NCBI GenBank assembly: GCA_030765785.1
Contig: JAVCCC010000043.1
Location: forward strand, 1 to 43,643
Source of the DNA: Candidatus Aceula lacicola
GTDB lineage: Bacteria; Omnitrophota; Gorgyraeia; Zapsychrales; Aceulaceae
DNA: 43,643 nucleotides
Reading direction: 5' to 3'
Part shown: positions 14,275-42,834 of the stretch, one piece after another
Numbering within the stretch: the stretch's first letter is position 1
How the letters are laid out: each line of letters begins with the position of its first letter
The notes under the pieces: model-generated
What the model saw: only the letters and a program-made list of their open reading frames with translations
Database searches by the model: none
Told to the model about the DNA's origin: nothing
Made by a program: the position numbers and the translations under genes

Positions 14275-14275
14275 T

Positions 14276-16096: not shown

Positions 16097-16103
16097 TAAT
16101 TAA

Positions 16104-18070: not shown

Positions 18071-18072
18071 TC

Positions 18073-19068
18073 CTAAGGAATCCTTAAAAGCAATGTTCTA
18101 GATAACAATATCTCAAGACACAAGATAACTAATCCTAAGGCAACAAAAACCCAAAATAACTGTTGATAATCTCTGTATCCAGATTGTTCAATCTCTGTTT
18201 TTTCAAGTCTATCAATAGCTTTATAAATATCTCTCAAAGATTCTGTATCCATTGCCCAGAAATATTCTCCAGACGTTATTTTTGCAATCTCTTTTAAAGT
18301 ATGGTCATCTAAATTGATCTCGACGTTTTGATAAGCCGTCCTACCCCAAAAATCTTTAGCAGGAAACGGAACTGGTCCTTTAGTGCCAACTCCTATTGTA
18401 TAGATACGAATTTTATTGGTCTCAGCTATTTTTGCAGCTTCAATGGGATCAATTTTCCCAGCATTATTAACCCCATCAGTGAGCAAAATTACAATCTTGC
18501 TTTTTGCCTTACTATCTTTAAGTCTCGCCACAGACGAAGCTATAGCCGATCCAATTGCAGTACCATCTTCTATCAAGCCAAGTCTTAAGCGCTCTAGGTT
18601 TGTTAAAAGCCATTCGTGATCTAAAGTTAACGGACAAATCGTATAAGCAAAACGAGAAAACGCAATAATACCTATCTTGTCATCCTTACGCCCTTCGACA
18701 AATTCCTTAACAACGTTTTTTACAATTTCCAAGCGGTTCACACGTCTATTTTGTAGCTTAAAATCTTCTGCCCCCATGCTACCCGAGACATCAACGGCCA
18801 AAATAATATCAATCCCTTCTGTCTTATGCTTGGTTTCCTCAAGCGCTCGACGCGGACCTGCCAACGCAATCAAAAAGAATAAAACAGTAATCAAGCGCAA
18901 AACAAAAAGATTTTGACTCAAAGTAACTTTAAAGCTTCCAAGAGTATCCTTTAAAAGAATACCAGAAGAAAACCTAAGCGTTGGCTTCTTCTTATGTTTA
19001 TACCTCAAGTAAACCAGCGCAAGAACAACAGGTGCAATAAATAAAATCCAAGGATCTTTAAATTCCAT
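18073..19068 (-). CDS. batA: BatA-like VWA-domain membrane protein
   Basis: A 331-residue paralogue of the next gene. It has an N-terminal helix (DPWILFIAPVVLALVYLRY), a second hydrophobic segment, a VWA domain with an intact MIDAS (AVDVSGSMGAED; GTAIGSAIASSV; LLTDGVNNAG) and a C-terminal helix (LFWVFVALGLVILCLEILL). The frame extends to a TTG at 19092, but the ATG at 19068 has AAGG ten bases upstream and begins right at the helix (MEFKDPW), so I use it; it overlaps the upstream stop by 11 bases. Together with BatB it probably forms a heteromeric VWA complex in the inner membrane. Confidence 0.88.
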   Translation of the reverse strand: MEFKDPWILFIAPVVLALVYLRYKHKKKPTLRFSSGILLKDTLGSFKVTLSQNLFVLRLITVLFFLIALAGPRRALEETKHKTEGIDIILAVDVSGSMGAEDFKLQNRRVNRLEIVKNVVKEFVEGRKDDKIGIIAFSRFAYTICPLTLDHEWLLTNLERLRLGLIEDGTAIGSAIASSVARLKDSKAKSKIVILLTDGVNNAGKIDPIEAAKIAETNKIRIYTIGVGTKGPVPFPAKDFWGRTAYQNVEINLDDHTLKEIAKITSGEYFWAMDTESLRDIYKAIDRLEKTEIEQSGYRDYQQLFWVFVALGLVILCLEILLSRTLLLRIP

Positions 19069-19603
19069 TATCTGTTCGCCTTGTCTGATCAATCAATTTT
19101 TTAGCCAATAAAAAACTATTCTCCATCTCATCAATCTTCGGACCATATTTAGCAAACTTTACCATATCGCAAGAGTCTAGAAATTCACGTAAAAAACTTT
19201 TTTGAGATGCAACCAAAGAAGGAGCCTGCTTAAGTTCCCTTAAAAATTCCTCAGTAGTCATTTCAGGTGCTTTAATCAAAAATTCACCCTCTAAATACCT
19301 TCGAACAATATCTGAGAGCTCAACATAATACTCTTGGATCTTTCCTTCTCGAGGAAAATCCTTAAGCCTTAAATTTTCTAAACGCTCACAAGCAATAGCA
19401 TAAGGTGGCCTGGTCACAACAGGAGCCTGCAGCTTATTTCTTTTCTTAAGATAAAAATAGCGGAATAAGAAAAATCCTCCTAAGGCTAACGCCAAGAAAA
19501 CGATAACAAGTAAAAAAAAATAATTTGCAGGAAATTCAACTGGCGGCTTAATCCCGCGAAGTCCTTCAGATTCTTGAGCAAAACATTCAGTAACAAAAAA
19601 CAT
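19058..19603 (-). CDS. Single-pass membrane protein of the Bat cluster (unknown function)
   Basis: A 181-residue protein always expected at this place in Bat-type clusters, between the DUF58 gene and batA. A short N-terminus that resembles the end of a signal peptide (VTECFAQES) is followed by PPVEFPANYFF, one membrane helix (~28-50, LLVIVFLALALGGFFLF), a basic stretch (YLKKRNK) and a mostly helical cytoplasmic domain (SDIVRRYLEGEF; MTTEEFLRELKQ). AAAGGAT lies nine bases before the ATG at 19603. Similar proteins are annotated only as DUF4381-like or hypothetical. It may link BatA/BatB to cytoplasmic MoxR, which is inference from topology. Confidence 0.72.
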   Translation of the reverse strand: MFFVTECFAQESEGLRGIKPPVEFPANYFFLLVIVFLALALGGFFLFRYFYLKKRNKLQAPVVTRPPYAIACERLENLRLKDFPREGKIQEYYVELSDIVRRYLEGEFLIKAPEMTTEEFLRELKQAPSLVASQKSFLREFLDSCDMVKFAKYGPKIDEMENSFLLAKKLIDQTRRTDNGI

Positions 19604-19605
19604 AT

Positions 19606-20496
19606 TTAACGAATCCTTTTTCTTCGTTTAATAAAAAACTTTGCTAAATCATTGGCATACGGACGATCCGTTGAAATATTAATAAAATCCATTCCAACCG
19701 ATCGAAACAATTCCTCTCTTTTTAAAACTCTCTCTTTAGAGCTCTTACGATATTCTTCTCTAACTCCGAAATTACCCGAATCAACAGAAAACATTTCTCC
19801 TGTCTCAGCATCTTCCAAATCAATAATACCGCAATCAGGGAGTTCACTCTCTCTTGGATCATTAAGAGTAACTGCTATTAAATCATGGCGCTTATTAGCT
19901 ATTGCCAAATCTTTTTTTAGACGAGCTACGATATCAGATTCAAAAAAATCAGAAATCAAAAAAGATACACTTTTTCGCGTTGTGACCCTGCTTAAATATT
20001 CAAGAGCCTCACGTATATCCGTTTTCTGCCCTTTTGGCTGATAGTACAAAACCTCACGAATAACGCGAAGCACGTGACGAATACCTTTTCTAGGAGGAAT
20101 AAATTTCTCTATTCCATCTGTAAAAATAATTAATCCTATTTTATCATTATTTCTAATAGCGGAGAAGGCCAAAACAGCAGCTATTTCTGCAGCAAGCTTG
20201 CTTTTTAATTCATTTACTGTTGCAAACTGACAAGACTTTGATGCATCAACAAGAAGCATTACAGTCATTTCACGTTCTTCAACAAATTTCTTAATATGAG
20301 GCTTTCCTGTTCGTGCTGTAACATTCCAGTCAATTGTTCTAATGTCGTCTCCCGGCTGGTATTCACGAACTTCATCAAATTCCATACCAAGGCCCTTAAA
20401 AACGCTATGATAAGCCCCTGCAAAGACATTTGTAACAAGCCTAGATGTCCTTATCTCAATATGGCGAACATTTTTTAGAATTTCTTTAGGAATCAT
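19606..20496 (-). CDS. DUF58 protein of the MoxR-Bat cluster
   Basis: A 296-residue DUF58 family protein. The N-terminal signature GMEFDEVREYQPGDDIRTIDW and NVTARTGKPHIKKFVEEREM is unmistakable; a VWA-like fold follows (MLLVDASKSCQF, IIFTDGIEKFIPP, FLISDFFES). No membrane segment is seen, so it should be cytoplasmic. DUF58 genes follow moxR in most genomes and are thought to work with the MoxR ATPase, but no reaction is known. The gap to moxR is 17 bases and to the next gene 2 bases. Confidence 0.93.
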   Translation of the reverse strand: MIPKEILKNVRHIEIRTSRLVTNVFAGAYHSVFKGLGMEFDEVREYQPGDDIRTIDWNVTARTGKPHIKKFVEEREMTVMLLVDASKSCQFATVNELKSKLAAEIAAVLAFSAIRNNDKIGLIIFTDGIEKFIPPRKGIRHVLRVIREVLYYQPKGQKTDIREALEYLSRVTTRKSVSFLISDFFESDIVARLKKDLAIANKRHDLIAVTLNDPRESELPDCGIIDLEDAETGEMFSVDSGNFGVREEYRKSSKERVLKREELFRSVGMDFINISTDRPYANDLAKFFIKRRKRIR

Positions 20497-20513
20497 GACT
20501 AACTTCTAATTGT

Positions 20514-21512
20514 TTACGGAACTTCAACTTCATCAAATATTCTTTTAACAATATCCTCAGATGTCTTTTCTTCCGCTTCTGCCTCGTAGGTTGGCGTGAC
20601 ACGATGACGTAAGACATCCATCCCGATGGATTTAACATCTTGCGGGGTCACATAACCACGTCGCTGAATAAACGCATAGGCCTTAGAAGCTATAGCAAGA
20701 TAAATGCTTGCACGCGGCGAGGCTCCATACTGAATCAATCCCTTCAGATCAGAAAGATTATAGTTTTGAGGATTTCTTGTTGCCTCAACAAGATCAATAA
20801 TATACCGCTCAACTTTTTCATCCATATAAATCTCATCAATCAAACTGCGTACTCGTATAATGTCTTGAGGCGTAACAATTTTCTTTACATCAAACTCCTT
20901 TTTTGTAAATGACATGCGTTTTAAAATCTTATATTCTTGCTCTTTTGTCGGATAAGTAATATTAACTTTTAGCATAAAACGATCCACCTGAGCTTCAGGC
21001 AAAGGATATGTACCTTCTTGCTCGATAGGATTTTGCGTAGCCAATACCAAAAATGGATCATCTAATTTTAAAGTCTCTTCTCCTATTGTAACCTGTCTCT
21101 CCTGCATAGCCTCAAGCAACGCACTCTGCACTTTTGCTGGAGCTCGATTAATCTCATCCGCTAAAATAATATTTGCAAAAATAGGACCCCTTTTTACGCT
21201 AAACGTTGACGTCTTTGGCTCATAAATAACTGTACCTGTTAGATCTGCAGGCAACATATCTGGAGTAAATTGTAACCGTTGAAATTTTGCCTGAATAACA
21301 TCCGAAAGAGTTCTGACTGCAGTAGTTTTTGCCAATCCTGGAACGCCTTCGATAAGAATATGACCATTGGCTAAAAGACACACCAAAAGTCTCTCGAGCA
21401 AATATTCTTGGCCAATAATTACTTTTTGCATTTCAAAAAGAATGCCATCTAAGAACGAACCTTCTTTCTTAACCTTTTCGTTAATAACAGTAACGTCACT
21501 TTTTTCTGCCAT
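20514..21512 (-). CDS. moxR: MoxR-family AAA+ ATPase
   Basis: A 332-residue MoxR ATPase, first gene of the Bat operon. Walker A is GVPGLAKTT (residues 56-64), Walker B is ILADEINRAP with Asp119 and Glu120, sensor-1 is LATQNPIEQEGTYPLPEAQVDRF, and GASPRASIYLA is the C-terminal lid region. All catalytic parts are present. MoxR proteins act as chaperones that help load metals or assemble complexes bearing VWA proteins, here presumably BatA/BatB. AAGGAGG lies six bases before the ATG. A promoter candidate lies ~65 bases upstream. Confidence 0.96.
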   Translation of the reverse strand: MAEKSDVTVINEKVKKEGSFLDGILFEMQKVIIGQEYLLERLLVCLLANGHILIEGVPGLAKTTAVRTLSDVIQAKFQRLQFTPDMLPADLTGTVIYEPKTSTFSVKRGPIFANIILADEINRAPAKVQSALLEAMQERQVTIGEETLKLDDPFLVLATQNPIEQEGTYPLPEAQVDRFMLKVNITYPTKEQEYKILKRMSFTKKEFDVKKIVTPQDIIRVRSLIDEIYMDEKVERYIIDLVEATRNPQNYNLSDLKGLIQYGASPRASIYLAIASKAYAFIQRRGYVTPQDVKSIGMDVLRHRVTPTYEAEAEEKTSEDIVKRIFDEVEVP

Positions 21513-21724: not shown

Positions 21725-24700
21725 TTAAAAGAAAACGTCAATACGCTTACATTTTCCTGCGCGAATACGCTCAGCATAAGGTGACGGAATCACTTTATCG
21801 TTAAGCTCAATATTCTTTTTTGTACCAGAAAAATCAAGAACAACTTTTTTAATCTTTGACGAAACATCAAATGTATTAACTCGTTTTGGATTATGATAAA
21901 CAACTAATGTCGAGGCAATAAAATTAAAAGCATACGTATTTTTAGGAAACGCTATATCTTGCCATTTCTTAGCGTGATCACAAAAACGAACACATGTTGG
22001 CTTTGTTGTAAACAAAGACTTTTCCAAAATTGGCTTAAACTCAAGCTGCAACTTTCCGTTTTTATCTAAAGTAAAAGGCTTTAATCCTGCATTCATAAAA
22101 AGCCACATATGCAAAGATTCAGCTGTTGACCCGCTAAGACGTGCAACATATCCTCGCCCATGAATATCAGGATCCTCATGTGCGCTACTAACAATAAAAG
22201 AAGAATTCTCTAAGATACTGCGGCTATATTGCTTTGGATCCAAAAATGGTACTAGCGTATTTCTTAAGTTAGAATAAAACTCTTGATAAAGCCCACAACG
22301 TAACAGCTCAAGTAAAAATTTATATTCCATATGTAGCCAAATCGATTCATTTTCAAGCCATCCAGAAGGAAAAATACGCGTACGTCCAATTTCTGATGAT
22401 TCACCAGACAAATGAGCATTAACCTTATACATTTTTAACTTCTTATCAAACAAATTACTTGATCGAACATCTTTATAATATTCCCTTGCACCTTTTGGAT
22501 TTGCCTCGACGCGAAGAGCATGAACAAATCCTTCAAGAAATGGCGGCAAAGCATGTCTTTTAAATTTCGTAGGAATAACAAAAGACACATCTTGATCACT
22601 ACCATCTTTAATCTCTTTATAATTTGTAATTTGATGACTAAAATAAGTGGCAAGCACTCCCTTTTTACCTTTGGCAAGAGAAACACCCTTGTCTACTTTC
22701 TTAATCACAAGATTTAAAAATTTCTTTATCTCTAAAACCGATATAGATTTTTCTTTTCCCGTAATACCTAATAAAACAGATTTTCGATACGCTTCTTTAA
22801 TATCATTTGATTCTTGCCAATAAAAAAAAGCGTTCTTCTGAGTCGAAAGAACACCTGTTAGCTTCGAAATAAAACCAACTAGCTCTTCAAACATGCTAAC
22901 TGATGTTTGATCAGAAACATTCAATTCCTTAAAAGAATTTATTAAAAACAAACAAAATCTCTTTATTTCTAATGCTTCTGAAATTGCAGATCCAAGAAGT
23001 CCTGGCAAGCCATTAAGAGCATCATACCAATTTGGCTTATCCGCTTCCATTTCAACACCAACACCAGAAGGATCGAGCGAAGCTGATTTGTTAGCAACAA
23101 GACATAAAAGCTTTGTTGTCAAATTTGTAAAATAAATAGATCCTTGTCCATTTTTTACTCTCAGCTTGCTATCCCTCTTAGAAGAAAGCATGGTCTCGGA
23201 CATTTTCGTCACAGATTGATATTGACGCGGTCCTCGATCTGTTAAAACGTATCTTTGTCGTCTAGGTAAAACATAATGATTATTATGATAAAAACTAAAT
23301 GCCTTTTTATCTAAAAATAAATTTCCTAAATTCTCAGGATAAACATTTAAATAACTTTCAATAAGATCTAAATTATACGTCCAATGATCTGTCCAAAACC
23401 CTTCACCATGATCCGCTAGCTCGCGAATATGACAAAAAGAAAGAATCGTTGTTAAAAACTCTTTCGGTGTTGTTGTAAGTTTAATATGATTTTCAAAAAT
23501 AAATTTTAAAAGCTCACCTGGAAAGAAATCTTTTTTCAAAAACGCGCTAACTAGTTTTGCATTCTTGCTTTTTACATATTTCTTAACCAACCGATCAGCT
23601 AGATTTGGATCAGACAAACCAAACGCTGTTCCCCTAACAACAAGAGGATTGTATCCGTCAGCTTGACTTAATGATAAAAAGTTAATTATGCCTGTGTCTT
23701 TAAGATCCTGATTAAACCAAATATCATTCCGTCTATTCTGATTAACATCTCGATAGTTTCCGTTTCCTTGCGATAAAAATGTCGGATTTAGAACAAAATA
23801 GTTATAATCTCTTTCAGGATCGCCGTGCTTTCGACTAAAAACATTAAAAACAACATTGCCCTGCTCTGTCTTAATCGAAATTGGAAGACCACCACGCAAG
23901 ACATTGTCAACAAACGTTTGAGACGAATACAAATTAAATTCACGCGAATCACTATTAGTAAAGACTAGATTTCGGATCTCATCAATAATCTCGCGACTTC
24001 GCTCTATCTTTGCATTCAAATAACTACTCGCAATACTTTTCTTAACAATTCGATTAAGTTCGGGCTTACTATGAATATATCCAATCATAGACGTGACAAC
24101 CGTTTTTTGTCCTGGCTTAAGAGAACTTTTTGCAAAACTCATCGCACAAGGAGTCTTATTCCTTGTTTTTTGTTCTTTAGGAGATTTGAAATTCTTTTGA
24201 TCAACAAACGCTTTTGGATAGATAAAATCCTTTGATCTTCCAAAGATACAAGATGGCTGAACAATCGGATCTAAAAGTTTTGGTGATTCTCCATTTCCTT
24301 GAAAACTAAAATAAAAATTACCTTCCGTAATATTTTGAACACATGGCTTATCAGAAACAACGACTTTCAAGTTATAATACGCTGCTTTCATCTTTAAATT
24401 GCTAACCTGAATCCAAGCTTCAGCGGTTCGAGACATATCTTTTAAAAGCTGATACTTTAATCCATAAGGAATAATGACAGGCATCCCATCAATAATCTCA
24501 ATATCATATTTCTTTTTTGATAAATTCTTAACAGAAACTCTTCGAATCAATGCTGCATACTGTTCTTCGGGAAGCGCTGAATAAGTGACCTCAACAGAAA
24601 TGCCAAGCGTTTCATTAATCTCTTTAATTGTTAAATCATGGGCTGACATCGCCATTTTCTGAACACGCTTAAATTTACAATTAATCAAATTTTCTTGAAA

Positions 24701-25009
24701 AGGTTCGTAAAAAACTGTTTTGGCGCCATCTTTAATTTTAAGAAAAGTACGAAAACCTTGAAGAGAAACATCGCGATACGCCTTATTTGCTGGCTGAAAC
24801 TCCATAATCGACTTATCTTTACTCTCAACGCCAAAACTTGAAATACATTGCCCACGATTCACATAAAAAATCCACATCGGTATTCCCCAAACTCCAGCAA
24901 TCCCAGGAAAAAAATTTGTAAACGGTTTTGCATTGCTATAATTTTCAATAACAAATCGATTTTCTTGATCTAAATAATACCGAACTTCTTCTTTCTTTTT
25001 TGTGGTCAT
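21725..25009 (-). CDS. Cellobiose-phosphorylase-like (GH94/GH36-type) cytoplasmic enzyme
   Basis: A 1094-residue protein without signal peptide or membrane helix, so cytoplasmic. The N-terminal ~330 residues look like the beta-sandwich of glycoside phosphorylases; the rest looks like an (alpha/alpha)6 barrel. NYRDVNQNRRNDIWFN, DGYNPLVVRG, GEGFWTDHWTYNLDLIESYL, NWYDALNGLPGLLGS and ARLSGSTAESLHMW are patterns I associate with proteins annotated as cellobiose phosphorylase. Asp663 in NWYDALNG lines up by eye with the general-acid Asp in the GDWND motif of GH94. GH94 enzymes split beta-glucosides with phosphate; substrate cannot be told here, and it may be a glycoside hydrolase of the same clan. 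Last gene of its operon, 30 bases after a CE4 deacetylase. Confidence 0.68.
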   Translation of the reverse strand: MTTKKKEEVRYYLDQENRFVIENYSNAKPFTNFFPGIAGVWGIPMWIFYVNRGQCISSFGVESKDKSIMEFQPANKAYRDVSLQGFRTFLKIKDGAKTVFYEPFQENLINCKFKRVQKMAMSAHDLTIKEINETLGISVEVTYSALPEEQYAALIRRVSVKNLSKKKYDIEIIDGMPVIIPYGLKYQLLKDMSRTAEAWIQVSNLKMKAAYYNLKVVVSDKPCVQNITEGNFYFSFQGNGESPKLLDPIVQPSCIFGRSKDFIYPKAFVDQKNFKSPKEQKTRNKTPCAMSFAKSSLKPGQKTVVTSMIGYIHSKPELNRIVKKSIASSYLNAKIERSREIIDEIRNLVFTNSDSREFNLYSSQTFVDNVLRGGLPISIKTEQGNVVFNVFSRKHGDPERDYNYFVLNPTFLSQGNGNYRDVNQNRRNDIWFNQDLKDTGIINFLSLSQADGYNPLVVRGTAFGLSDPNLADRLVKKYVKSKNAKLVSAFLKKDFFPGELLKFIFENHIKLTTTPKEFLTTILSFCHIRELADHGEGFWTDHWTYNLDLIESYLNVYPENLGNLFLDKKAFSFYHNNHYVLPRRQRYVLTDRGPRQYQSVTKMSETMLSSKRDSKLRVKNGQGSIYFTNLTTKLLCLVANKSASLDPSGVGVEMEADKPNWYDALNGLPGLLGSAISEALEIKRFCLFLINSFKELNVSDQTSVSMFEELVGFISKLTGVLSTQKNAFFYWQESNDIKEAYRKSVLLGITGKEKSISVLEIKKFLNLVIKKVDKGVSLAKGKKGVLATYFSHQITNYKEIKDGSDQDVSFVIPTKFKRHALPPFLEGFVHALRVEANPKGAREYYKDVRSSNLFDKKLKMYKVNAHLSGESSEIGRTRIFPSGWLENESIWLHMEYKFLLELLRCGLYQEFYSNLRNTLVPFLDPKQYSRSILENSSFIVSSAHEDPDIHGRGYVARLSGSTAESLHMWLFMNAGLKPFTLDKNGKLQLEFKPILEKSLFTTKPTCVRFCDHAKKWQDIAFPKNTYAFNFIASTLVVYHNPKRVNTFDVSSKIKKVVLDFSGTKKNIELNDKVIPSPYAERIRAGKCKRIDVFF

Positions 25010-32738: not shown

Positions 32739-34223
32739 TTAAAAATCCTTTTCCGAGAAAACCTGTGCAGAAAAAATTTCCAAAGTAATAGAAGGGTCTT
32801 TCCATGCATCCGCAGGTAGCCCTGCTTTATGCGCGCATAAATAAGACAAGAATTGTTCGCGATTCCATCCTTGCTCAGTTGCAACCTGTGGTAAAAATAA
32901 TCCTCTATGAGCTGAATCCTTGGTCACAATAACACCGTGAACACCAAGCTCAATTTCTTCTGAATCACTAATCTTCCATGGCTTCGATAAAACAGAAACC
33001 TCAATCTCCAAATCTTCCAGCTCTTTTTTGCTAACAGGAGGAAAGCGCGGATCTTGCGAACAAGACGCAATCGCCATATCTCGAACTGTTTTATAAAGCG
33101 GTCCTCGACCTAAAATATTTCCAATGCATCCTCTTAAATTCCCATCTTTGTGAATTGTAACAAACGCTCCTTCTTCTTTTAAAAATCGCTCATCATCCTC
33201 ACTAACATCCAAAATATTTTCATTCTCAACATATTCTTTTATTGTTTTCGTTGCAATCTCAATCAAACGTTTTTTTTGCACATCACTCAAAAGAATTGTT
33301 TTATCATTGTCTTCACTCAGCTTATCTTGTTTATAAAAAACAGCTGATAAATATCCGACAACAGCACTTTTATCCCCAGTCACATCTCCTGAATCAGCAT
33401 ACTTCAAGATTGAAACATCAAGATTTCTTTTTTGAGCATATAAAAGAGCAGCTGAAACAGAAAAAACACCACACAACTCAGACAAGCCTTTCGAACATCT
33501 CTCCAGCAACTCTCGTGCATCTAAATCTTTAATAAACGAGATAGTTTTGTCATCCATATTCTTTGCTATTTTCGCATTATGATAATGCGACATGTCTGTG
33601 CTGACGACAATCAAAACATCCTCTCGGTCACCGATAATTTCATCCAATGATGATGCAAAACTTTCACATTGATCGTAATCGATCTGTCCAACAATCACAG
33701 GAACGATTCTAAAATCTTTAAAAGTTCTTTGCAAAAAAGGAATCTGAACTTCGAGCGAATGTTCTTTAACAAAAACTTCCGGAATAAAATTGACATTCTT
33801 ATTCTTCTCAATAAGCTTATTAGTAAAATCTTCATCTACCGCAACCAACCCTAGAGGCGTTTCAAATGCACCCTTTGCCCAAACAGATACCCCTGAAAAT
33901 TTAAAATGATGAGTTGGAGCCAAGACCACGATTGTAGAATATTTTTGTTTTTTTGCTGCCTTATATCCATAAGCAGCAACTAGCCCAGAATAAATATATC
34001 CAGCATGGGGAGAAATAATAATTTTTATCTTTTCATTTATTAAATCAGATTTTGCCTGCAAAAAGAATTCATCAATTTGAGAAACAAGCTGAGCCTTGTC
34101 GGAAGGATAAAACTGCCCGCTAACATTTGGAGCTTTAATAAAGTTCTGACTATTGGCATTAGCGCACATAGAGATAATAGTGATGATAACAGTAAAGAAA
34201 TAACGAAAATGTAAAGCCTTCAC
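32739..34223 (-). CDS. Exported MEMO-AMMECR1 fusion (AmmeMemoRadiSam proteins B and A)
   Basis: A 494-residue two-domain protein. Residues ~28-295 are a MEMO1-like domain: SPHAGYIYSG (His73), APTHHF (His105/106) and LCGVFSV (Cys251), matching the His/His/Cys metal ligands of MEMO. Residues ~315-490 are AMMECR1: GAFVTIHKDGNLRGCIGN (Cys366), QDPRFPPVSKKEL and TEQGWNREQFLSYLCAHKAGL. In many genomes the two are separate or joined and stand beside a radical SAM gene; none is here. Unusually, a hydrophobic N-terminus (YFFTVIITIISMCANANS) looks like a signal peptide, implying export. Start is GTG with AAGGA six bases upstream. The family's reaction is unsettled; metal-dependent copper or dioxygenase-type chemistry has been proposed. 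Confidence 0.92.
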   Translation of the reverse strand: MKALHFRYFFTVIITIISMCANANSQNFIKAPNVSGQFYPSDKAQLVSQIDEFFLQAKSDLINEKIKIIISPHAGYIYSGLVAAYGYKAAKKQKYSTIVVLAPTHHFKFSGVSVWAKGAFETPLGLVAVDEDFTNKLIEKNKNVNFIPEVFVKEHSLEVQIPFLQRTFKDFRIVPVIVGQIDYDQCESFASSLDEIIGDREDVLIVVSTDMSHYHNAKIAKNMDDKTISFIKDLDARELLERCSKGLSELCGVFSVSAALLYAQKRNLDVSILKYADSGDVTGDKSAVVGYLSAVFYKQDKLSEDNDKTILLSDVQKKRLIEIATKTIKEYVENENILDVSEDDERFLKEEGAFVTIHKDGNLRGCIGNILGRGPLYKTVRDMAIASCSQDPRFPPVSKKELEDLEIEVSVLSKPWKISDSEEIELGVHGVIVTKDSAHRGLFLPQVATEQGWNREQFLSYLCAHKAGLPADAWKDPSITLEIFSAQVFSEKDF

Positions 34224-34725: not shown

Positions 34726-37700
34726 TTATCTTATAGCATAATCCGAAGACCAGCTGTGATCGAGTGGCCCTAGCGCAGAACGCGCCAAACTTTTGGCTGG
34801 CTTTTCTAGGTCATCATCAAATCCCAAAAGAACTGGAAGATGCGGCATTGGCCTAATATTAATAATCACTGGTATAAATCCTTCTACATTGATCTGATTG
34901 AGATTTTGAAACTCCATTGGAAGAGGCGATCCACTTATATCTATCTTTATATTTAAATCTTCATAAACTCCTGTTAAATCAATACCACCTATTGAGGAAG
35001 AATTTTTACCTAATTCATTTTCTTCAACAAAATCTGAAAGACCAAATCGCAAAATCTCTCGTGCAACTTGTCTCCCTTCAACTGTAGAGGCAAGCTCGCT
35101 CATAACAATCATAAAATCACCTATAGGAGCCTTAAACTCATAAAGACTCCGCTGAGCTTCTTTTTTCTTTTTAAATATCAATTCAAAATTATCTCTTTCA
35201 GCGCTACCGTCTTTATTATTATAAATTGCAAAAAGATCTTGAAAAATTTCGTCTTTAGAAATTCCATCCCAAATAAGCTCTGGAACAATAACAGATTTTC
35301 CTGCAAGCTGATCGATATTTGGAACAGTAATAAGAGTGTCGCTAATGATAGCGCTTATTTTCTGGATTTGATCTCTAGCAGCTTTCACGATCGACTTTCT
35401 ACCAATTCCTGAACCTTTGTTTCTTGCAAGAGCACGAACAAATTCACGAGCAATGGATTGATTCTTTTCTAACAAACTACTCAAAATAACAAAGAATCCT
35501 TCCTCTGTCATGCGATAAAATTCAAGCGAAGCGGAAGGAAAATGTATCTCGATTTCACCCTCTTTTAGCTCTCCATTTTCTTCTTTAACGCTAAGAGTCT
35601 TAACATGAAGTTTCCAAAACCACTTTCCTATCTCTTTTTTGACATCATTGATAATCTCAGATTTAACAACAAACACTTTCCCCAGCAATACATCAAGATG
35701 ATTAACCGGAAGAATTGATACTAAAGGATCTTTAAAGGATTTAATAATTTCTCGTGCTGACTTCAAACTTAAACTACTTGAAACTTGTTCAAAACGCTTT
35801 TTTGCCTCGCTTAAAGCTTCCTCATAGCCGCTGCTAAAAAGAATTTGTGAAGTCTCATAAAGATCTTTAAGTGTTACATCAAAACCAAAAACTTCCTTTA
35901 AAACGGCTGTAACGTTCTCACCTGTATATTGCTTTGCCATTGGTGCATCTAAAATTGCATGCTGCCTTCCATCATCTTCTTTAGCAAGGCCTATTGTATA
36001 AAGATTTAGTCGAGCATTTGCAACTTTTGACGATTGCATCAAAGCAACAAGACCATCAATAATTTGTTCTTGAACCTTAGGGTTACTTTTGTTAATACTT
36101 GAACTTGCAGATTGTTTTTTAACTTCTGCTAAAATAGATGAACTTTTTCGTTGTGAATGCTCGCTTGGACCCGCATTCCTGTTTAAATCATCAATAATTT
36201 CTTGCTCGCTTAAATCATCAACACCAAATTTCATCCATTCAAAAACAGCTTCTTTTGTAGCATTCTCAATCTTTTTCTTAAAACTGGTAAACCTGCTCGG
36301 CAAATTAATATCTGCAATACGCATAAAGGGTAAAAAATGCTCGTCAATCTCTAGGATAAGACCCCTTCCGGATACAAATTCAACAAGAACCGTTCTCCAG
36401 CCCTTATCAAAAAGTGCTTCTTGTGATTTTATAGAATTTATAAACACATTATAAGCAATTCTATCTTGCTCAGAAGAAAGCTTGCCTTTCTTGTCAAATT
36501 CAGGATTAACAATAATGTTCAAAGGCTTCCGCCCTATTTTAGATGCAACCTTTTCTATAATATTTCGAAAAACTTTCTCACTTAAAACCACTTTCTCATA
36601 CTTTGCGGACAATAAAAAAAGCTTTTGTTCAAAATCAAAAATAACATCTTTAATCATTTGCTTATATTCGAGATCCGCATTAACTCTTAATTTCTGACCA
36701 TTTTTATATTTTAGCTTCAAAGGTTTGCCAAATCTTAAAACACGCACGTTAAACAAAGAAGAATCTTTCACAAAACTAATTTCGACTTCAGTCCCGTTTG
36801 GAAAACGAATTGAAACTTTCAAAGGGTCTGCTGTTTTATCAAAAATAAATTTTGTTGGGTCTCCAGAAATTCGATTAAATTTTTTCTCAAAATTTACCTT
36901 AAAATCATTAATATCTGTTTTATAAGAATACGGTATCGATCTCGAAATCGCATTACCTGTCGGTAGCAATGATATTGCTAATTTTGGCAATACGCTAATG
37001 TCAACCTCCTTTTCCATCACTTCTTCCTTATCTTTACGACTTCTTTGAGCATGCTCATCAATTGCTGACTTAATCCCAAAAGTTAAATCCCAAACAAAAT
37101 CTTTGGCCACCCCACAGGACAAACCTTTTTTAGAAAATACAGAATATTCAACCGTAGGATATTTATAAAGAAGAATCGATCCATCTAAGCTAGATCTCAA
37201 TCTATAAAAACCTTCCGCATCTCTAGCAACCTGCATATAAGGAATATCGTTAAAATAAAGATCTTTAACATTAGCTAGATCACCCATGCTAAAAGGATCC
37301 TCAATAAAATCTCCCCATAAATCCACAAGAGAAAGCTTCTTCTGAGCGCTAAGACTTTCAATATGCTCTAAAATAAATGGAAAATTCTTAAAATCTTTCT
37401 TCTTACCTTCATTCTTAAACTTTATACAATACAATTTCCCTTGTTTTACAAACTCTATGTCTCCATTTCTCTCAGCAGTCTCAATCGTAACAAACTTAAG
37501 GGAAGACTTGATATTGATAAGATTCTCATCAATAATCTTCTGAAGACCTTCATAAAATTTAGAAAGACTGCGAGTTTCAATAAGCGCAGCTTTTTCAATA
37601 ATAATTTTCTCCGCAACATCATAAAAATTAACCACCAAGCTACTGCTCGCGTTTACCTTATCTTTAATATATTTCTTCAATTCTTTTCTCTGGGCAACAA

Positions 37701-40700
37701 AAAGGCGATCTAATCCAAACGAATGCATTCCTCTCATAAAATGAGAATCTAAATTCTTACGAATAAAAGGAACTACCTCTGTCATAACTTTCTCTGTATC
37801 AATATTTGTTTTTACGCCCAAAGCGTCAAGAACAAACAAAAGATCTTCTGTTGTTAAATTTCCAACATTGCTTCCAGATAAAGGATTTCCTCCTTGATGC
37901 AAAATAGAAACATCTAGAACATCAACTCCTGCTTTTATCCCCGCCACACCCTTTGCAACTCCGTAGACACCTCTTGTATGCGCATGCAAAGCCAATGTTT
38001 TTCCATCTAGATTTATTCTCTCTTTTATTTCTTCAATTAAATCTGTAATCTCAGACGGAGACGCCTCACTCGTCGTATCACAAACAACTAATTCATCAAC
38101 ACCCATTCTTACAGCCTGCTGAAACATGCGAACGACTTTTCCAGAAGAAATCTTATCAAATTGCCTTTTTCCCTCTTTGTCTTTATAGCTATACCCAAAA
38201 GAATTGCTTAAATAAAAACGAATTCGAACAGGATTAGGATTCGTTCTTTGCTCCTCGTCCCGATATTGTTTCTCTAATTCTCGAACTCGATTAATCGTTC
38301 CCTGCTTATATCCTAAAGACCCTTCCGCAGTGACTGATTCATCATCTAAATCTCTTCCCATATTTCTTCTCTGATAAATATCAGAAGCACCAACGACAAT
38401 AGAAATCTCATCTAAATTAGGATGAAGCTCAAAAGCTTTATTAACTTGATCTTTCTTAAAAACAAGATAACCAAATTCTGCATCCTTTGCTGAGAACTCA
38501 GCGCTAACATAAGCCGTAAGCTCTTCGGTATAATCCCTCATAAATGGAAAAGAATCTGCTTGCGTAAAAGATGTAACCTCAATCCTTGGTTTCGGTCCCT
38601 TTCCTTCATACGCAAAACTATTAATTATTCTTCGAATAGCTTCTTTAGCTATTTTAATATTAAAAAAATTATTTCCCGTTTTAAGAGTTTGCAAAAGTTC
38701 TCTGATCACTTCGTAAATAATAATTTGTTGTCCATTTAAAGCCTCAGCATATTCTTTTAACGATGTATTGTATTTCTGAGCTAACTTCTCAGTATTATCT
38801 AAAAATAAATCGATCTTGCGCTTTGCTTCGTCATATGGCTTTAAGCTAAGCGCATCAAGTCCTGGCAAAACTGTATTCTCAAAAACTTCTAAAGTTGCCC
38901 CACCAGCCAAAAAAACATGCCCAAATTTATCATGCGAAATTCCAAATTTATTAATCGCAGCAACAGAATCTCCTCCTCCAATTCCAGCATACCCAGAAGA
39001 ATCTGCCATAGCCCTTAAAATACCTTCTGTTCCCTTAGAAAACTTCTCTATCTCGAAAATACCCATTGCACCGTTCGCAAAAGAAGATGACTCCCCTAAG
39101 CCAATAATTCTTGAATATAATTCAATTGTTCTTGGTCCAATATCAACAATTTCCCACCCCTTTGGAATTTTTGATGTTCCTGAAATAAGACGATCTGTAC
39201 TAAAAACCTTAGTCTCTGCACTTTGATCGACTCTACTTGCAGCTAAAACATCTACCGGTAAAACTAGCTTTCCTTTATTAGCTGGATCATCAAGAAGTTT
39301 TCGAGCTTTCTCAACTTCTGCTTGATTAGCGCCAAAAGAATTCTGAACATCAACACCTAACGCTTTTAAGAAAGCATTTCTCATAGCTCCACCAACAAGA
39401 AGAAATTTAAGGTTTTCTGATCTTAAAAGATTCTTCATCACTTTAATCTTATCTGAAACCTTGCTACCTCCCATAACAACAACTTCAACGCCTTTTAAAA
39501 ATTTCTTTAACGCCTCTAACTCTTTTTGAACTAAAAGACCTGTTACTCGAAGAATATTTTTTGGCGCACCAACAACAGATGCGTTCACTCTGTGGGAAAC
39601 GCTAAAAGCATCATTAACAAAAATATCAACACCATCAAAATACTTATCAACCAATTCTTTATTCCTTTGAAGAGCCTCACTATATGCCTCTTGAGCTTCT
39701 CGGAGGCCTTCCTCAGACTTTTCTGCAGCCTTTAACTTACTTGTTGCAGAAACAACAATGTCTTCAGCTTCATTAAAACGCGTATTCTCTAAAAGAAGAA
39801 TCTCGCCTTTTTTCATATCATTCTTTATAAAATCTTTAGCATCCGCTACAGTCTGATAATTTGTATTAAAATGCACCTTCTTAAAATCTTTCTCTAATCG
39901 TTTAGCAATTGGAAATAAGGTAAGGTCAAAGACTCTTTTTCCTTTTGGTCGACCTAAGTGAGACGCCACAATAACTTTTGCTCCACGGCTTACAAGATAT
40001 TTTAAAGTTTCTTTCGATGCAGAAATACGAGAATCGTCTGTAATATTGCCATCAAAGTCTATTGGAACATTATAATCAGCTAAAACAAACACAACAGCCC
40101 CGTCATAATTATCAATATCTCTTAAACTCATCTTATCCAACGAAGCCAAAACGGGACTCGCAGAAAATGCTGGCGAAATAATCTCGCTTGCTGTCCAAAC
40201 CCCACGTCTAAACGCTGGCTTTTCTAGTCGAAACTTCCCCCATTTACATGTAAAATCAAGATGCTCTATCCTTTCATTTCCTTCTACATAATCAAGAAGA
40301 GGCTTTTCTCCTACCGAAGTGTAAAGACGGACTTCTTTTGCTATCCCAAGGTATATTTCCACCTCTTTAATAACCTCTGAAGGCGTCTCTAAATATCCTG
40401 TGATTCTGCCTTCAATTTTCTTTAATTTCTCTCCTACAGTGCTACTCGAAAAAGATTCTTCTTCTGTTTCATTTTCAATCGACGAAACATCAGCAAACCA
40501 CTTAAGAGTCTCATTATCTCGCATGACATTAATGATGTGGTGCTCAAGATCAAAATTTATATAATCTTCCTCTACTTCTCCAGCAAACTTAATAAGATGC
40601 TCGATCGGCTGAGCTCGTCCATCTTGAACAACGCGAATACTTTTGATTACTTCAAAAAGATTCTCAGAAGAAATATCTTCTGGCAAAAACTCAATCACTT

Positions 40701-42834
40701 CAGGAAGCATAGAAACTTCAGGAATAATAACATCAAAAAATTCCCAAAATCCTACCTGAGAATTATTTTGTACATTGATAATAATGCGCCCAGCCTGAAT
40801 AAGTCCTACAGAATTCGTTCCTTTTAAATCAATATTCTCTAGATTAAATAAACTAGATTTACTAACTTCAAGAATCAATTCTTCCCATGTTAAACTAGAA
40901 GAAAATTTTGTTATTAATGCAGAAGAATTTCTCTTGTTCTGAGTAAGCCTTCCAGCCCTTTTAACAATCCAGGTCTCCTCCGGAGCGTTCTGATCGAATG
41001 CAATTCTAACAACGCGTGCATCCGAAAGAAAAACTTCAACTACATCAATATCCTCATCTACTGGAATATCTTCGACAGCATCTATCAAATTAAAAATACC
41101 TTGCATTGGTATCTCGTCCTTCTCTCCATCAGAAAACTCTAAATAAACTCGTTCTGGTAAAACTCCAGGATAAGCTTGATCAATTCTTTCAAAAGCAGCC
41201 GTTAACGATCCTTTGATCTTATCTCCCTCTCGGAGCGCTATGCCTGATGAAGATAAAAACGCGATCTTTTCATTTCCCTTAATAATATGTAGCGCACATC
41301 CCTTAGAAGAATTAATAATTTCTTTTGCCTTTGAAATATTTATTGGCTTTAAAGTTCTTCTATTATAAATACGAATATCTCTATTTACTCCACTTTCAAG
41401 AGCCCCAGCAACATTACTAGGCCCATAATAATAAAAATATTGAGCATTGCCAAAAAAACCTCGAATCGTACTATCAGGTTCTCTGTTTGTCTGAAAACGT
41501 TTCTGGTTAGACCCTTCCCCCAAGCCCCGAGCAGAAGCACTGATTCCCCTTTTCATTTTCCTTAAAAGATCAAGCGTCTCTCGATTCGCCGCTCCAATTC
41601 CTACTCCTTGCCCAAAATCTACAACTTTCACTGTCCCGTCAGCTTTCGTAATCCTTACAACAGGAGATGCAGATCCTACTAGGGCAGCTGTAAACATTGT
41701 GTTATCACCATCTTTAATAATATTCTTTTGATGAATCTTCGTCGGAGAAGAAATTAATTCTAGCCTAGAGCTCACCTCTGCGGCAATCTGAATACCACCT
41801 GAAAAATACTTACGAGGAATATTTCTTTTAGAATGCTGATCATATTCTGGCTTAATGTAATTGTAAGCACCTTTTTTGTAAGCCTCTAAATATTGCTGAT
41901 AAATTTTCTCTTTAATACCCTCTTCATCAAGACCTAGTCCTTTAAATTTATTCTGATCTACATAAATTTGTCCTAACAAGCTTTGATTTAAAGCTTTTTT
42001 AAACCATACCGCTAAAATTAAGGAATGATAAACTTGTCTAAGTGATGCAAAATTTTTACCTTGATTAACTTCTTTTTCAAGCTCCGGCAAAACAATTTCT
42101 CGAACAATATCAGAAGCTAATTTATTTTCTGTCGTTCCTTTTATATTCTTTAAGGATTCATCACTGCTTTGGAGGGCCACATAATCTTCTTCAAGCATAA
42201 CTTTCAAACTTGCTTCTGCAACAAAAACCATGTTGCCTTGCTCATAGACAGAAACTCTATCGGGCATAATCCAAACCTTATTAAATGTATCAATCGGAAT
42301 TTCTGTTGTGCCATACACCTCATAAGCTTTTTTATAAACTTTATCCCAGAACTTTTTTCCAAGATCATCTTCTGGATAAATTAAAGAAGCTGTAATTTGT
42401 TTTAAAATATAATCTTGAGCCAAGAGGTCTCTTCCGATATCGGTTTGCGCAAGAGAGCCTGGAATAATACGATTTTCTTCATAAGGCGAAAGGTTAACCC
42501 AAAGATCTTTTTCTGGAGCTGTTAGAGACGCAAGAAAATATTTAATCATCTTCTCAGCTTCACCCGTTAGTTCATCGCCAGACAAGTTATCATCGCCATC
42601 ATTAACAATAAAATCAAATTCTAAAGGATTCTCAGGATGAATTTGAATGCCTGTTAAAAGCGCTGGATTGTATCCTAGGCTTAAATGAACCATGGACCCC
42701 GGAGTCGGTAAGAGACTTAGCGTTTGTGCAAAGCCAGGAGCGGGAATAATAAAATTTGTTAAGAAAGCAAAAGCAACAAACATCGACACGACCTTATAAA
42801 AATGGCCTTGCCTTTCTCTCTTGAAAGTCAGCAT
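34726..42834 (-). CDS. Giant exported protein with PGK and DRE-TIM (HMG-CoA-lyase-like) domains
   Basis: 2702 residues. Signal peptide 1-36 (FVAFAFLTNFIIPAPGFA). Module 1 (~37-345, LLPTPGSMVHLSLGY to RKYFSGGIQI) resembles the N-terminus of large Omnitrophota proteins. ~366-900 is unrecognised. ~900-1330 is a phosphoglycerate kinase: Asp920, Asn922, Arg936, His959, Arg962, Arg1019, Arg1082, Lys1125, Lys1129, Asn1254, Glu1261 and Asp1289 are kept; the WNGP box reads ANGA, and ~30 helical residues are inserted before NDAF. ~1370-1700 is a DRE-TIM barrel like HMG-CoA lyase: Arg1378, Glu1419, His1617, His1619 and Asn1659 are kept, but Asp is Glu1379 and the catalytic Cys is Asn1650. ~1730-2610 is unrecognised, with Ser-rich linkers. 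The C-terminus (2616-2702, GGIDL onward) is probably a conserved tail. AAGGAG seven bases before the ATG; own promoter and terminator. Role unknown. Confidence 0.9.
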   Translation of the reverse strand: MLTFKRERQGHFYKVVSMFVAFAFLTNFIIPAPGFAQTLSLLPTPGSMVHLSLGYNPALLTGIQIHPENPLEFDFIVNDGDDNLSGDELTGEAEKMIKYFLASLTAPEKDLWVNLSPYEENRIIPGSLAQTDIGRDLLAQDYILKQITASLIYPEDDLGKKFWDKVYKKAYEVYGTTEIPIDTFNKVWIMPDRVSVYEQGNMVFVAEASLKVMLEEDYVALQSSDESLKNIKGTTENKLASDIVREIVLPELEKEVNQGKNFASLRQVYHSLILAVWFKKALNQSLLGQIYVDQNKFKGLGLDEEGIKEKIYQQYLEAYKKGAYNYIKPEYDQHSKRNIPRKYFSGGIQIAAEVSSRLELISSPTKIHQKNIIKDGDNTMFTAALVGSASPVVRITKADGTVKVVDFGQGVGIGAANRETLDLLRKMKRGISASARGLGEGSNQKRFQTNREPDSTIRGFFGNAQYFYYYGPSNVAGALESGVNRDIRIYNRRTLKPINISKAKEIINSSKGCALHIIKGNEKIAFLSSSGIALREGDKIKGSLTAAFERIDQAYPGVLPERVYLEFSDGEKDEIPMQGIFNLIDAVEDIPVDEDIDVVEVFLSDARVVRIAFDQNAPEETWIVKRAGRLTQNKRNSSALITKFSSSLTWEELILEVSKSSLFNLENIDLKGTNSVGLIQAGRIIINVQNNSQVGFWEFFDVIIPEVSMLPEVIEFLPEDISSENLFEVIKSIRVVQDGRAQPIEHLIKFAGEVEEDYINFDLEHHIINVMRDNETLKWFADVSSIENETEEESFSSSTVGEKLKKIEGRITGYLETPSEVIKEVEIYLGIAKEVRLYTSVGEKPLLDYVEGNERIEHLDFTCKWGKFRLEKPAFRRGVWTASEIISPAFSASPVLASLDKMSLRDIDNYDGAVVFVLADYNVPIDFDGNITDDSRISASKETLKYLVSRGAKVIVASHLGRPKGKRVFDLTLFPIAKRLEKDFKKVHFNTNYQTVADAKDFIKNDMKKGEILLLENTRFNEAEDIVVSATSKLKAAEKSEEGLREAQEAYSEALQRNKELVDKYFDGVDIFVNDAFSVSHRVNASVVGAPKNILRVTGLLVQKELEALKKFLKGVEVVVMGGSKVSDKIKVMKNLLRSENLKFLLVGGAMRNAFLKALGVDVQNSFGANQAEVEKARKLLDDPANKGKLVLPVDVLAASRVDQSAETKVFSTDRLISGTSKIPKGWEIVDIGPRTIELYSRIIGLGESSSFANGAMGIFEIEKFSKGTEGILRAMADSSGYAGIGGGDSVAAINKFGISHDKFGHVFLAGGATLEVFENTVLPGLDALSLKPYDEAKRKIDLFLDNTEKLAQKYNTSLKEYAEALNGQQIIIYEVIRELLQTLKTGNNFFNIKIAKEAIRRIINSFAYEGKGPKPRIEVTSFTQADSFPFMRDYTEELTAYVSAEFSAKDAEFGYLVFKKDQVNKAFELHPNLDEISIVVGASDIYQRRNMGRDLDDESVTAEGSLGYKQGTINRVRELEKQYRDEEQRTNPNPVRIRFYLSNSFGYSYKDKEGKRQFDKISSGKVVRMFQQAVRMGVDELVVCDTTSEASPSEITDLIEEIKERINLDGKTLALHAHTRGVYGVAKGVAGIKAGVDVLDVSILHQGGNPLSGSNVGNLTTEDLLFVLDALGVKTNIDTEKVMTEVVPFIRKNLDSHFMRGMHSFGLDRLFVAQRKELKKYIKDKVNASSSLVVNFYDVAEKIIIEKAALIETRSLSKFYEGLQKIIDENLINIKSSLKFVTIETAERNGDIEFVKQGKLYCIKFKNEGKKKDFKNFPFILEHIESLSAQKKLSLVDLWGDFIEDPFSMGDLANVKDLYFNDIPYMQVARDAEGFYRLRSSLDGSILLYKYPTVEYSVFSKKGLSCGVAKDFVWDLTFGIKSAIDEHAQRSRKDKEEVMEKEVDISVLPKLAISLLPTGNAISRSIPYSYKTDINDFKVNFEKKFNRISGDPTKFIFDKTADPLKVSIRFPNGTEVEISFVKDSSLFNVRVLRFGKPLKLKYKNGQKLRVNADLEYKQMIKDVIFDFEQKLFLLSAKYEKVVLSEKVFRNIIEKVASKIGRKPLNIIVNPEFDKKGKLSSEQDRIAYNVFINSIKSQEALFDKGWRTVLVEFVSGRGLILEIDEHFLPFMRIADINLPSRFTSFKKKIENATKEAVFEWMKFGVDDLSEQEIIDDLNRNAGPSEHSQRKSSSILAEVKKQSASSSINKSNPKVQEQIIDGLVALMQSSKVANARLNLYTIGLAKEDDGRQHAILDAPMAKQYTGENVTAVLKEVFGFDVTLKDLYETSQILFSSGYEEALSEAKKRFEQVSSSLSLKSAREIIKSFKDPLVSILPVNHLDVLLGKVFVVKSEIINDVKKEIGKWFWKLHVKTLSVKEENGELKEGEIEIHFPSASLEFYRMTEEGFFVILSSLLEKNQSIAREFVRALARNKGSGIGRKSIVKAARDQIQKISAIISDTLITVPNIDQLAGKSVIVPELIWDGISKDEIFQDLFAIYNNKDGSAERDNFELIFKKKKEAQRSLYEFKAPIGDFMIVMSELASTVEGRQVAREILRFGLSDFVEENELGKNSSSIGGIDLTGVYEDLNIKIDISGSPLPMEFQNLNQINVEGFIPVIINIRPMPHLPVLLGFDDDLEKPAKSLARSALGPLDHSWSSDYAIR

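What the first reader, a model, noticed from the sequence alone, without database searches (positions are those of the whole stretch)
34726..42834. A 2702-residue exported protein built around two central-metabolism enzyme folds
One intact 8.1-kb frame has a signal peptide, a phosphoglycerate kinase domain and an HMG-CoA-lyase-like barrel, joined by ~1700 residues I cannot assign. Glycolytic and acyl-CoA lyase folds are cytoplasmic enzymes; finding both in series in one predicted secreted polypeptide is, to my knowledge, not described. Giant proteins are reported in Omnitrophota, so this may belong to a class in which enzyme domains are recruited as building blocks or act on a host or prey cell. 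It has its own promoter, ribosome binding site and terminator, so it is an independently expressed unit.
Basis: partly seen in the sequence, partly recalled or inferred. Interest (0 to 1): 0.92.

Follow-up and report, generated by a model that had tools for sequence, protein, structure and literature searches.

The report
Exported giant protein carrying glycolytic enzyme
This bacterial gene encodes a very large, apparently exported protein that carries a glycolysis enzyme with an intact active site. It belongs to a previously undescribed Omnitrophota protein family that seems to move ordinary 'inside-the-cell' metabolic enzymes out of the cell, stripped of nearly every cysteine except those the chemistry needs.

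Summary
An intact 2702-codon minus-strand ORF has a Sec-type signal peptide, a phosphoglycerate kinase (PGK) domain (E 3e-102) and an HMGL-like barrel. It is one of about ten giants in this 1.5-Mb genome. All share a ~350-aa N-module, and all whose C-terminus is assembled share a ~65-aa C-tag. Neither module matches Pfam, NCBIfam or solved structures. The N-module occurs in 90 of 285 sampled genomes of the phylum (Omnitrophota), up to ~80 copies per genome. Between the modules sit swappable cytoplasmic-type enzymes: GAPDH, PGK, enolase, PPDK, PGI, transketolase, transaldolase, isocitrate lyase and others. One relative carries GAPDH-GAPDH-PGK-enolase, in pathway order, in one ORF.

Payloads are almost cysteine-free (0.08% pooled; neighbours ~1%), yet GAPDH (4/4 copies), isocitrate lyase and three radical-SAM-type payloads keep their catalytic or cluster cysteines. 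The window's PGK keeps 15/15 ligand residues. Best reading: an export platform for working metabolic enzymes. Export and activity are inferred, not shown; the place of action is unknown (perhaps a partner or prey cell). Two same-genus orthologues lack PGK, so enzymes are exchangeable cassettes. The HMGL barrel is not a canonical HMG-CoA lyase. The claimed promoter and terminator are at chance level.

The parts
34726..42834 (-). Giant ORF, 2702 aa (coordinates include the stop codon)
   Evidence: same architecture in 9 other own-genome ORFs
42727..42834 (-). Sec/SPI-type signal peptide, residues 1-36 (...PAPGFA|QT)
   Evidence: conserved n/h/c regions and AxA|Q-like site in siblings; 88/90 relatives match a signal-peptide pattern; no SignalP available
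41794..42726 (-). N-module, residues 37-347, ends ...IPRKYFSGG; conserved domain of no known family
   Evidence: 51-62% identity across own-genome siblings; 83-sequence alignment; 90/285 phylum genomes; no PDB, Pfam or NCBIfam match; AF2 pLDDT 80, pTM 0.79, no fold match
40123..41793 (-). Unassigned payload segment, residues 348-904; partly conserved in same-genus orthologues
   Evidence: no Pfam match
38878..40122 (-). Phosphoglycerate kinase domain, residues 905-1319, all 15 checked ligand residues kept, zero cysteines; absent from the two same-genus orthologues
37594..38835 (-). HMGL-like (DRE-TIM metallolyase superfamily) barrel, residues ~1334-1747; canonical RDGLQ not seen, lyase cysteine replaced (GGCP to GGNP)
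   Evidence: 43% identical homologue in L193/L200 with the same GGNP motif
35047..36099 (-). Unassigned payload segment, residues ~2246-2596, conserved in same-genus orthologues
   Evidence: 29-33% identity to L197 and L198
34798..35019 (-). C-tag, residues ~2606-2679 (SIGGIDL...VEGFIPVIINIRPMPHLPVLLGF)
   Evidence: alignments A2 and A7; in the own genome found only in the ten giants; in 59/66 complete N-module ORFs elsewhere; AF2 gives no confident fold

Best explanation
The gene belongs to a lineage-specific export platform. A Sec signal peptide plus a conserved ~310-aa N-module at one end and a ~65-aa C-tag at the other carry exchangeable cytoplasmic-type enzymes out of the cytoplasm as very long polypeptides. 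In this copy the main recognisable cargo is a phosphoglycerate kinase with an intact active site, followed by an HMGL-like barrel that is not a classical HMG-CoA lyase. Sister genes in the same genome carry GAPDH (two copies), enolase and the N-terminal part of PPDK, so together they carry most of lower glycolysis. Proposed working: Sec exports the chain unfolded; the N-module and C-tag anchor it or route it across the outer envelope; the enzymes fold and act outside the producer's reducing cytoplasm. Because PGK, GAPDH and radical-SAM enzymes need ATP, NAD+ or SAM, the likeliest place of action is the content of another cell (prey, host or lysate) or a closed envelope compartment. Shown: architecture, recurrence, payload identity, active-site retention, cysteine loss. 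Inferred: export, activity, roles of N-module and C-tag, destination.
For: Ten own-genome ORFs carry the C-tag, and it occurs in no other ORF there. The eight that are not cut by a contig start have signal peptide plus N-module; the other two keep the rest of the N-module. Elsewhere 59 of 66 complete N-module ORFs also have the C-tag. The N-module occurs in 90/285 phylum genomes, with 14-88 matches in six other genomes of the same order. Payloads are often central-metabolism enzymes. L168 is GAPDH-GAPDH-PGK-enolase, L164 PGK-enolase, L165 PGK-histidine phosphatase, in pathway order. All four genomes with giant enolase are among the nine with giant PGK, of 54 (p = 4e-4). The window's PGK keeps 15/15 ligand residues. 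Payload cysteine is 89 in 105,814 residues; 42 of 83 payloads have none; other frames have a median of 1.03% (p = 1e-38). The PGK domain has 0,0,0,0,0,1,0,0 cysteines in giants and 1-4 in canonical enzymes (p = 2e-5). Catalytic cysteines are kept: four of four GAPDH copies, each having only that one where canonical copies have six; the single cysteine in 3331 payload residues of L111 is the isocitrate-lyase one; three radical-SAM-type payloads keep CxxxCxxC. Obligate anaerobes are reported to exclude cysteine from exported proteins (PMC12453122).
Against: No proteomics, SignalP or activity data. The needed cofactors are not normally available outside cells, and radical-SAM clusters are hard to reconcile with Sec export. 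Some giant PGKs have lost key residues (L166, L167, L170), and the own-genome PPDK lacks the PEP-binding domain, so not all payloads can work. Same-genus orthologues lack PGK. The enolase of L013 keeps four cysteines. Most payload sequence is unassigned. The co-occurrence p-value ignores shared ancestry.
Confidence: 0.7

Rival explanations
1. Exported enzymes used for non-catalytic (moonlighting) purposes: adhesion, prey growth inhibition or a structural surface coat, with catalysis incidental.
For: Purified Myxococcus GAPDH and PGK inhibit E. coli growth (PMC10141889). Several payload copies are eroded or incomplete. Omnitrophota giant ORFs have been proposed as adhesins or coats (PMC10066038).
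Against: Selective retention of catalytic cysteines in otherwise cysteine-free chains, 15/15 PGK ligand residues, and enzymes set in pathway order are not expected if only the fold mattered.
Confidence: 0.15
2. The enzymes act in the cell's own periplasm or an intracytoplasmic membrane compartment reached through Sec, for example as an energy-yielding lower-glycolysis compartment.
For: Sec signal and cysteine exclusion fit a periplasm-derived lumen; GAPDH, PGK, enolase and PPDK form the ATP-yielding segment of glycolysis (general knowledge).
Against: No known ADP, NAD+ or triose-phosphate supply to such a lumen. No ATP/ADP translocase (PF03219) was found in 54 genomes of the order, though the control genomes did not ring either.
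Confidence: 0.2
3. Decaying captured genes: the N-module/C-tag pair randomly picks up cellular genes, as in terminal reassortment of type III effectors, and most payloads are passengers on the way to new or lost functions.
For: Patchy distribution; PGK absent from same-genus orthologues; long branches of giant PGKs; eroded copies (L166, L167, L170); most payload sequence not recognisable.
Against: Non-random set of pathway neighbours, co-occurrence, and retained active sites despite strong divergence.
Confidence: 0.2
4. Not exported: an N-terminally membrane-anchored or cytoplasmic multienzyme protein.
For: All identified enzymes use cytoplasmic cofactors (general knowledge); export was not measured.
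Against: N-in/C-out charge pattern with a conserved AxA|Q-like cleavage site; near-complete cysteine exclusion, while a giant of another kind that shares the HMGL domain, L200, has 46 cysteines in 3484 residues.
Confidence: 0.1

Closest known systems
Giant ORFs of Omnitrophota (Seymour et al. 2023, PMC10066038; Velamenicoccus archaeovorus giant protein)
   Same: Same phylum; very long predicted exported or surface proteins, poorly annotated.
   Different: Those are >20 kb, often with many transmembrane helices and adhesin domains. Here the complete ORFs run from under 3 to about 15 kb, with no clear transmembrane segment after the signal peptide in the window copy, a conserved N-module and C-tag, and cytoplasmic-type enzymes as cargo.
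Type III effectors made by terminal reassortment; polymorphic toxins
   Same: Conserved secretion-linked N-terminal part joined to many unrelated payloads; many copies per genome; cassette exchange (PGK present or absent between orthologues).
   Different: Sec signal instead of a T3SS signal, an added C-tag, giant size, and housekeeping metabolic enzymes in place of toxins. No secretion machine identified here.
Type IX secretion system cargo (C-terminal domain proteins)
   Same: Sec signal plus conserved C-terminal tag on varied large cargo (general knowledge).
   Different: The C-tag is short and predicted without a confident fold; no SprA match, but that test was not informative.
Surface and secreted moonlighting GAPDH, PGK and enolase, including Myxococcus GAPDH/PGK (PMC10141889)
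   Same: Glycolytic enzymes found outside cells and linked to predation.
   Different: Known cases are mostly single cytoplasmic enzymes without signal peptides (general knowledge). Here dedicated extra gene copies with signal peptide, cysteine removal and enzymes in series; a canonical PGK exists separately.
Bifunctional PGK/TIM fusion (NF010569)
   Same: PGK fused in a larger chain; it is the best NCBIfam match of the PGK region.
   Different: Score 323 against a cut-off of 883 bits; no TIM domain was found in the window protein.

Membership tests
Phosphoglycerate kinase (PF00162) | Full-length profile match | tested here: met
   342.9 bits against a cut-off of 27, profile 2-377 of 379
Phosphoglycerate kinase (PF00162) | Substrate- and nucleotide-binding residues | tested here: met
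   15 of 15 checked positions identical to the own-genome canonical enzyme
Phosphoglycerate kinase (PF00162) | Catalytic activity | not testable with these tools
   needs an enzyme assay
HMG-CoA lyase (HMGL-like, PF00682) | Profile match above cut-off | tested here: met
   58.8 bits against 29, but profile positions 70-254 only
HMG-CoA lyase (HMGL-like, PF00682) | N-terminal RDGLQ catalytic/metal motif and GGCP catalytic cysteine | tested here: not met
   N-terminal third not aligned; GGNP in place of GGCP. Filed as HMGL-like, not as HMG-CoA lyase
This exported-carrier family (N-module + C-tag) | Signal peptide, N-module and C-tag on one ORF | tested here: met
   N-module residues 1-347 with signal, C-tag ~2606-2679
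This exported-carrier family (N-module + C-tag) | Cysteine-poor payload | tested here: met
   0.19% overall, PGK domain zero
Omnitrophota giant ORFs (>20 kb, multi-transmembrane) | Length >20 kb | tested here: not met
   8.1 kb
Omnitrophota giant ORFs (>20 kb, multi-transmembrane) | Multiple transmembrane helices | tested here: not met
   only the signal peptide stands out; best other 19-residue hydropathy window is 1.62, borderline
Type IX secretion cargo | SprA translocon in the genome | tested here: inconclusive
   PF14349 no match, but no control genome rang
Type IX secretion cargo | Folded beta-sandwich C-terminal domain | tested here: inconclusive
   AF2 of the C-tag: pLDDT 71, pTM 0.29, no confident fold

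The most novel reading that the evidence does not exclude
Omnitrophota run a dedicated export system that places a working stretch of central metabolism (GAPDH, PGK, phosphoglycerate mutase, enolase, PPDK and others), as cysteine-purged giant multienzyme chains, outside the producing cell and into partner or prey cells or their contents. This would be a metabolic effector system or 'external glycolysis'.
Probability: 0.35. Interest if true: 0.97.

Novelty: categorically new. Interest (0 to 1): 0.9.

Why it matters
Central metabolism is treated as strictly cytoplasmic in bacteria. A family spread through much of a phylum, tens of copies per genome in some members, that fits cytoplasmic enzymes with a signal peptide, a novel N-module and a C-tag would be a new kind of protein export and possibly a new kind of cell-to-cell interaction: delivering metabolism in place of toxins. 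The cysteine pattern (nearly everything lost except catalytic residues) is an unusually clear evolutionary signature that working enzymes were adapted to leave the cytoplasm. It also gives names and testable functions to many giant unannotated proteins in a group thought to include predators and symbionts.

Tried and rejected
Assembly fusion of separate genes: rejected, since the architecture recurs in independent genomes. Recent duplication of the cell's own PGK: rejected, since giant PGKs sit on long branches largely outside the canonical clade (bootstrap mixed) and the window PGK is closer to several other giant PGKs (41-44%) than to canonical ones (31-37%). PGK-HMGL order as a conserved unit: rejected. 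Fold match of the N-module in PDB or viral structures: none at E <= 0.001. N-module in phage records: none. ATP/ADP translocase co-occurrence: 0 of 54, uninformative control. T9SS SprA: no match, uninformative control. Promoter and terminator scans: chance level. Literature: no paper describing such proteins found in the library searched; the library holds no preprints, so West-Roberts et al. 2023 on giant genes, known only from a citation, was not read.

Full report
WHAT IS THERE. The ORF at 34726-42834 is intact, on the minus strand, 2702 aa. It begins with a Sec/SPI-type signal peptide and holds a phosphoglycerate kinase (PGK) domain at 905-1319 (PF00162, E 3e-102) and an HMGL-like match at 1456-1684 (PF00682, E 7e-16). 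Solved PGKs match along both lobes; HMG-CoA lyases match only the second part of the barrel. The genome also has a canonical PGK and three other HMGL-family genes, so these are extra copies.

IT IS ONE OF A FAMILY. Searching the whole protein against its own genome (1.5 Mb, 95.7% complete) found the first ~350 residues again at 51-62% identity in other large ORFs, and the last ~65 residues as well. I fetched these: ten large ORFs of about 1170-2770 aa counting this one, two of them (L015, L016) truncated at contig starts. The N-module aligns with 62% mean column identity and ends in PRKYFSGG. The C-tag reads GGID...GFxPVIINIxPxxNxxxLLG, and in this genome it occurs only in these ten ORFs. The N-module has no Pfam, NCBIfam or PDB sequence match. 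Its AlphaFold model is fairly confident (pLDDT 80, pTM 0.79) but resembles no solved or viral structure at E <= 0.001. The C-tag model has no confident fold.

DISTRIBUTION. The N-module is in 90 of 285 sampled genomes of the phylum, and in nearly all of the same order (there at most about seven candidates per genome were scored). Counted fully, it gave 30, 14, 14, 18, 59 and 88 matches in six other genomes of the order, and 3-4 in two genomes of the same class (some matches are fragments of one gene). An 80-locus sample from GTDB genomes is labelled Omnitrophota in 76 cases; the other four carry Elulimicrobiota, Planctomycetales or no phylum labels. Of 66 complete N-module ORFs in that sample, 59 also have the C-tag.

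THE CARGO. Pfam scans of the siblings found two GAPDH copies with an acyl-CoA dehydrogenase (L009), the nucleotide-binding and swivelling domains of PPDK (L013, first gene), and an enolase with its two domains in swapped order (L013, second gene, next to the first). In 84 payloads from other genomes, recognisable domains include PGI, PGK, PPDK, FBPase, phosphoglucomutase, transketolase, TIM, transaldolase, isocitrate lyase, malate synthase and alanine and glutamate dehydrogenases, besides kinases, methyltransferases, ankyrin repeats and radical SAM. L168 carries GAPDH-GAPDH-PGK-enolase plus a weak class II aldolase in one 2991-aa ORF; L164 carries PGK-enolase; L165 carries PGK then a histidine phosphatase (the phosphoglycerate-mutase superfamily). 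The GAPDH-PGK-(mutase)-enolase parts follow pathway order. In 54 genomes of the order, giant-ORF PGK occurs in nine and giant-ORF enolase in four, all four among the nine (hypergeometric p = 4e-4, ignoring shared ancestry); giant GAPDH occurs in two of those four.

ACTIVE SITES. The window's PGK keeps all 15 ligand residues checked, as does L164; L168 differs at one (E to D) and L165 at three; L166, L167 and L170 have lost important ones. All four giant GAPDH copies keep the catalytic Cys and His, and the enolases keep the main catalytic and metal-binding motifs by inspection. The HMGL-like barrel lacks a recognisable RDGLQ motif and has GGNP in place of GGCP. A 43% identical homologue in a cysteine-rich giant of another kind (L193/L200) has the same GGNP, so this is a conserved distinct subfamily, not an HMG-CoA lyase.

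THE CYSTEINE SIGNATURE. 83 payloads hold 89 cysteines in 105,814 residues and 42 have none; other frames of at least 300 aa in the same loci have a median of 1.03% (p = 1e-38). Those frames are not all genes, so the comparison is approximate, but most genes of the window lie near 0.5-2% too. PGK domains: 0-1 cysteines in giants, 0.5% on average (1-4 each) in canonical enzymes (p = 2e-5). What is kept is telling. Canonical GAPDHs here have six cysteines; each giant copy has one, the catalytic one (4/4 against 0/20 retained, p = 9e-5, or 0.015 if only two copies are independent). L111 has a single cysteine in 3331 payload residues, and it lies in the isocitrate-lyase motif KKCGH. The three payloads with a CxxxCxxC motif (L090, L096, L103) all match radical SAM, two of them below Pfam's cut-off, and carry few other cysteines. 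A 2025 paper states that obligate anaerobes tend to exclude cysteines from exported proteins (PMC12453122). The simplest reading is that working enzymes were adapted to leave the cytoplasm. My own coarse signal-peptide split of the neighbours shows a smaller shift (0.84% against 1.14%), so the purge here is much stronger than that seen in the other frames with a signal-like start.

CASSETTE EXCHANGE. Two same-genus species have orthologues of the window gene: L197 (G177), and L175 plus L198 (G137, split over two contigs, so the join is inferred). They match at the N-module, in the first payload segment, at the HMGL-like region, towards the C-terminus and at the C-tag, but have no PGK. The window PGK is closer to several PGKs in giants of other families (41-44%) than to canonical ones (31-37%), and giant PGKs fall on long branches mostly outside the canonical clade, with modest support. 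Whether PGK was gained here or lost in the relatives is not settled.

MECHANISM. Shown: architecture, recurrence, cargo identity, active-site and catalytic-cysteine retention. Inferred: Sec export, a role for N-module and C-tag in anchoring or routing, and activity outside the cytoplasm. The place of action is open. Because the enzymes need ADP/ATP, NAD+ or SAM, I favour the content of another cell over open medium or periplasm. Predatory and symbiotic traits have been proposed for Omnitrophota (PMC10066038), and purified Myxococcus GAPDH and PGK inhibit E. coli growth (PMC10141889). The radical-SAM payloads are the hardest to explain by any export model.

LIMITS. No SignalP or proteomics; most payload residues unassigned; MAG data; no canonical enolase was found in this assembly, probably an assembly gap, though the search cannot tell; the family may be described in papers not held here.

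Noticed in passing
own genome G000:C8:13149-14096 (L013): The only enolase found in this genome lies inside a giant exported-type ORF, with the C-terminal barrel before the N-terminal domain; same-genus species have an ordinary-sized enolase.
   Followed up: partly
L200 (G045:C71), minus strand, frame at 1: A different 3484-aa giant, rich in cysteine (46) and without N-module or C-tag, shares the HMGL-like barrel at 43% identity.
   Followed up: partly
L090, L096, L103: Radical-SAM-type payloads in exported-type carriers keep CxxxCxxC in otherwise nearly cysteine-free chains; hard to explain for Sec-exported proteins.
   Followed up: partly
L015 and L016 contig starts: Both contigs break inside the N-module with 98% identity over 50 aa; the repeated module seems to break assemblies, so copy numbers may be underestimates.
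   Followed up: no
window 32739-34223: Memo-like and AMMECR1 domains fused in one ORF with a signal-peptide-like N-terminus.
   Followed up: partly
window 21725-25009: 1094-aa ORF without any Pfam match at E 0.001.
   Followed up: no
window 13504-21512: By eye, a MoxR ATPase / DUF58 / von Willebrand A / TPR / BatD-like gene cluster.
   Followed up: no
G286:C56 (L170) and G110:C77 (L171): An 8222-aa open frame containing a degenerate PGK, and a giant PGK broken over several frames.
   Followed up: no
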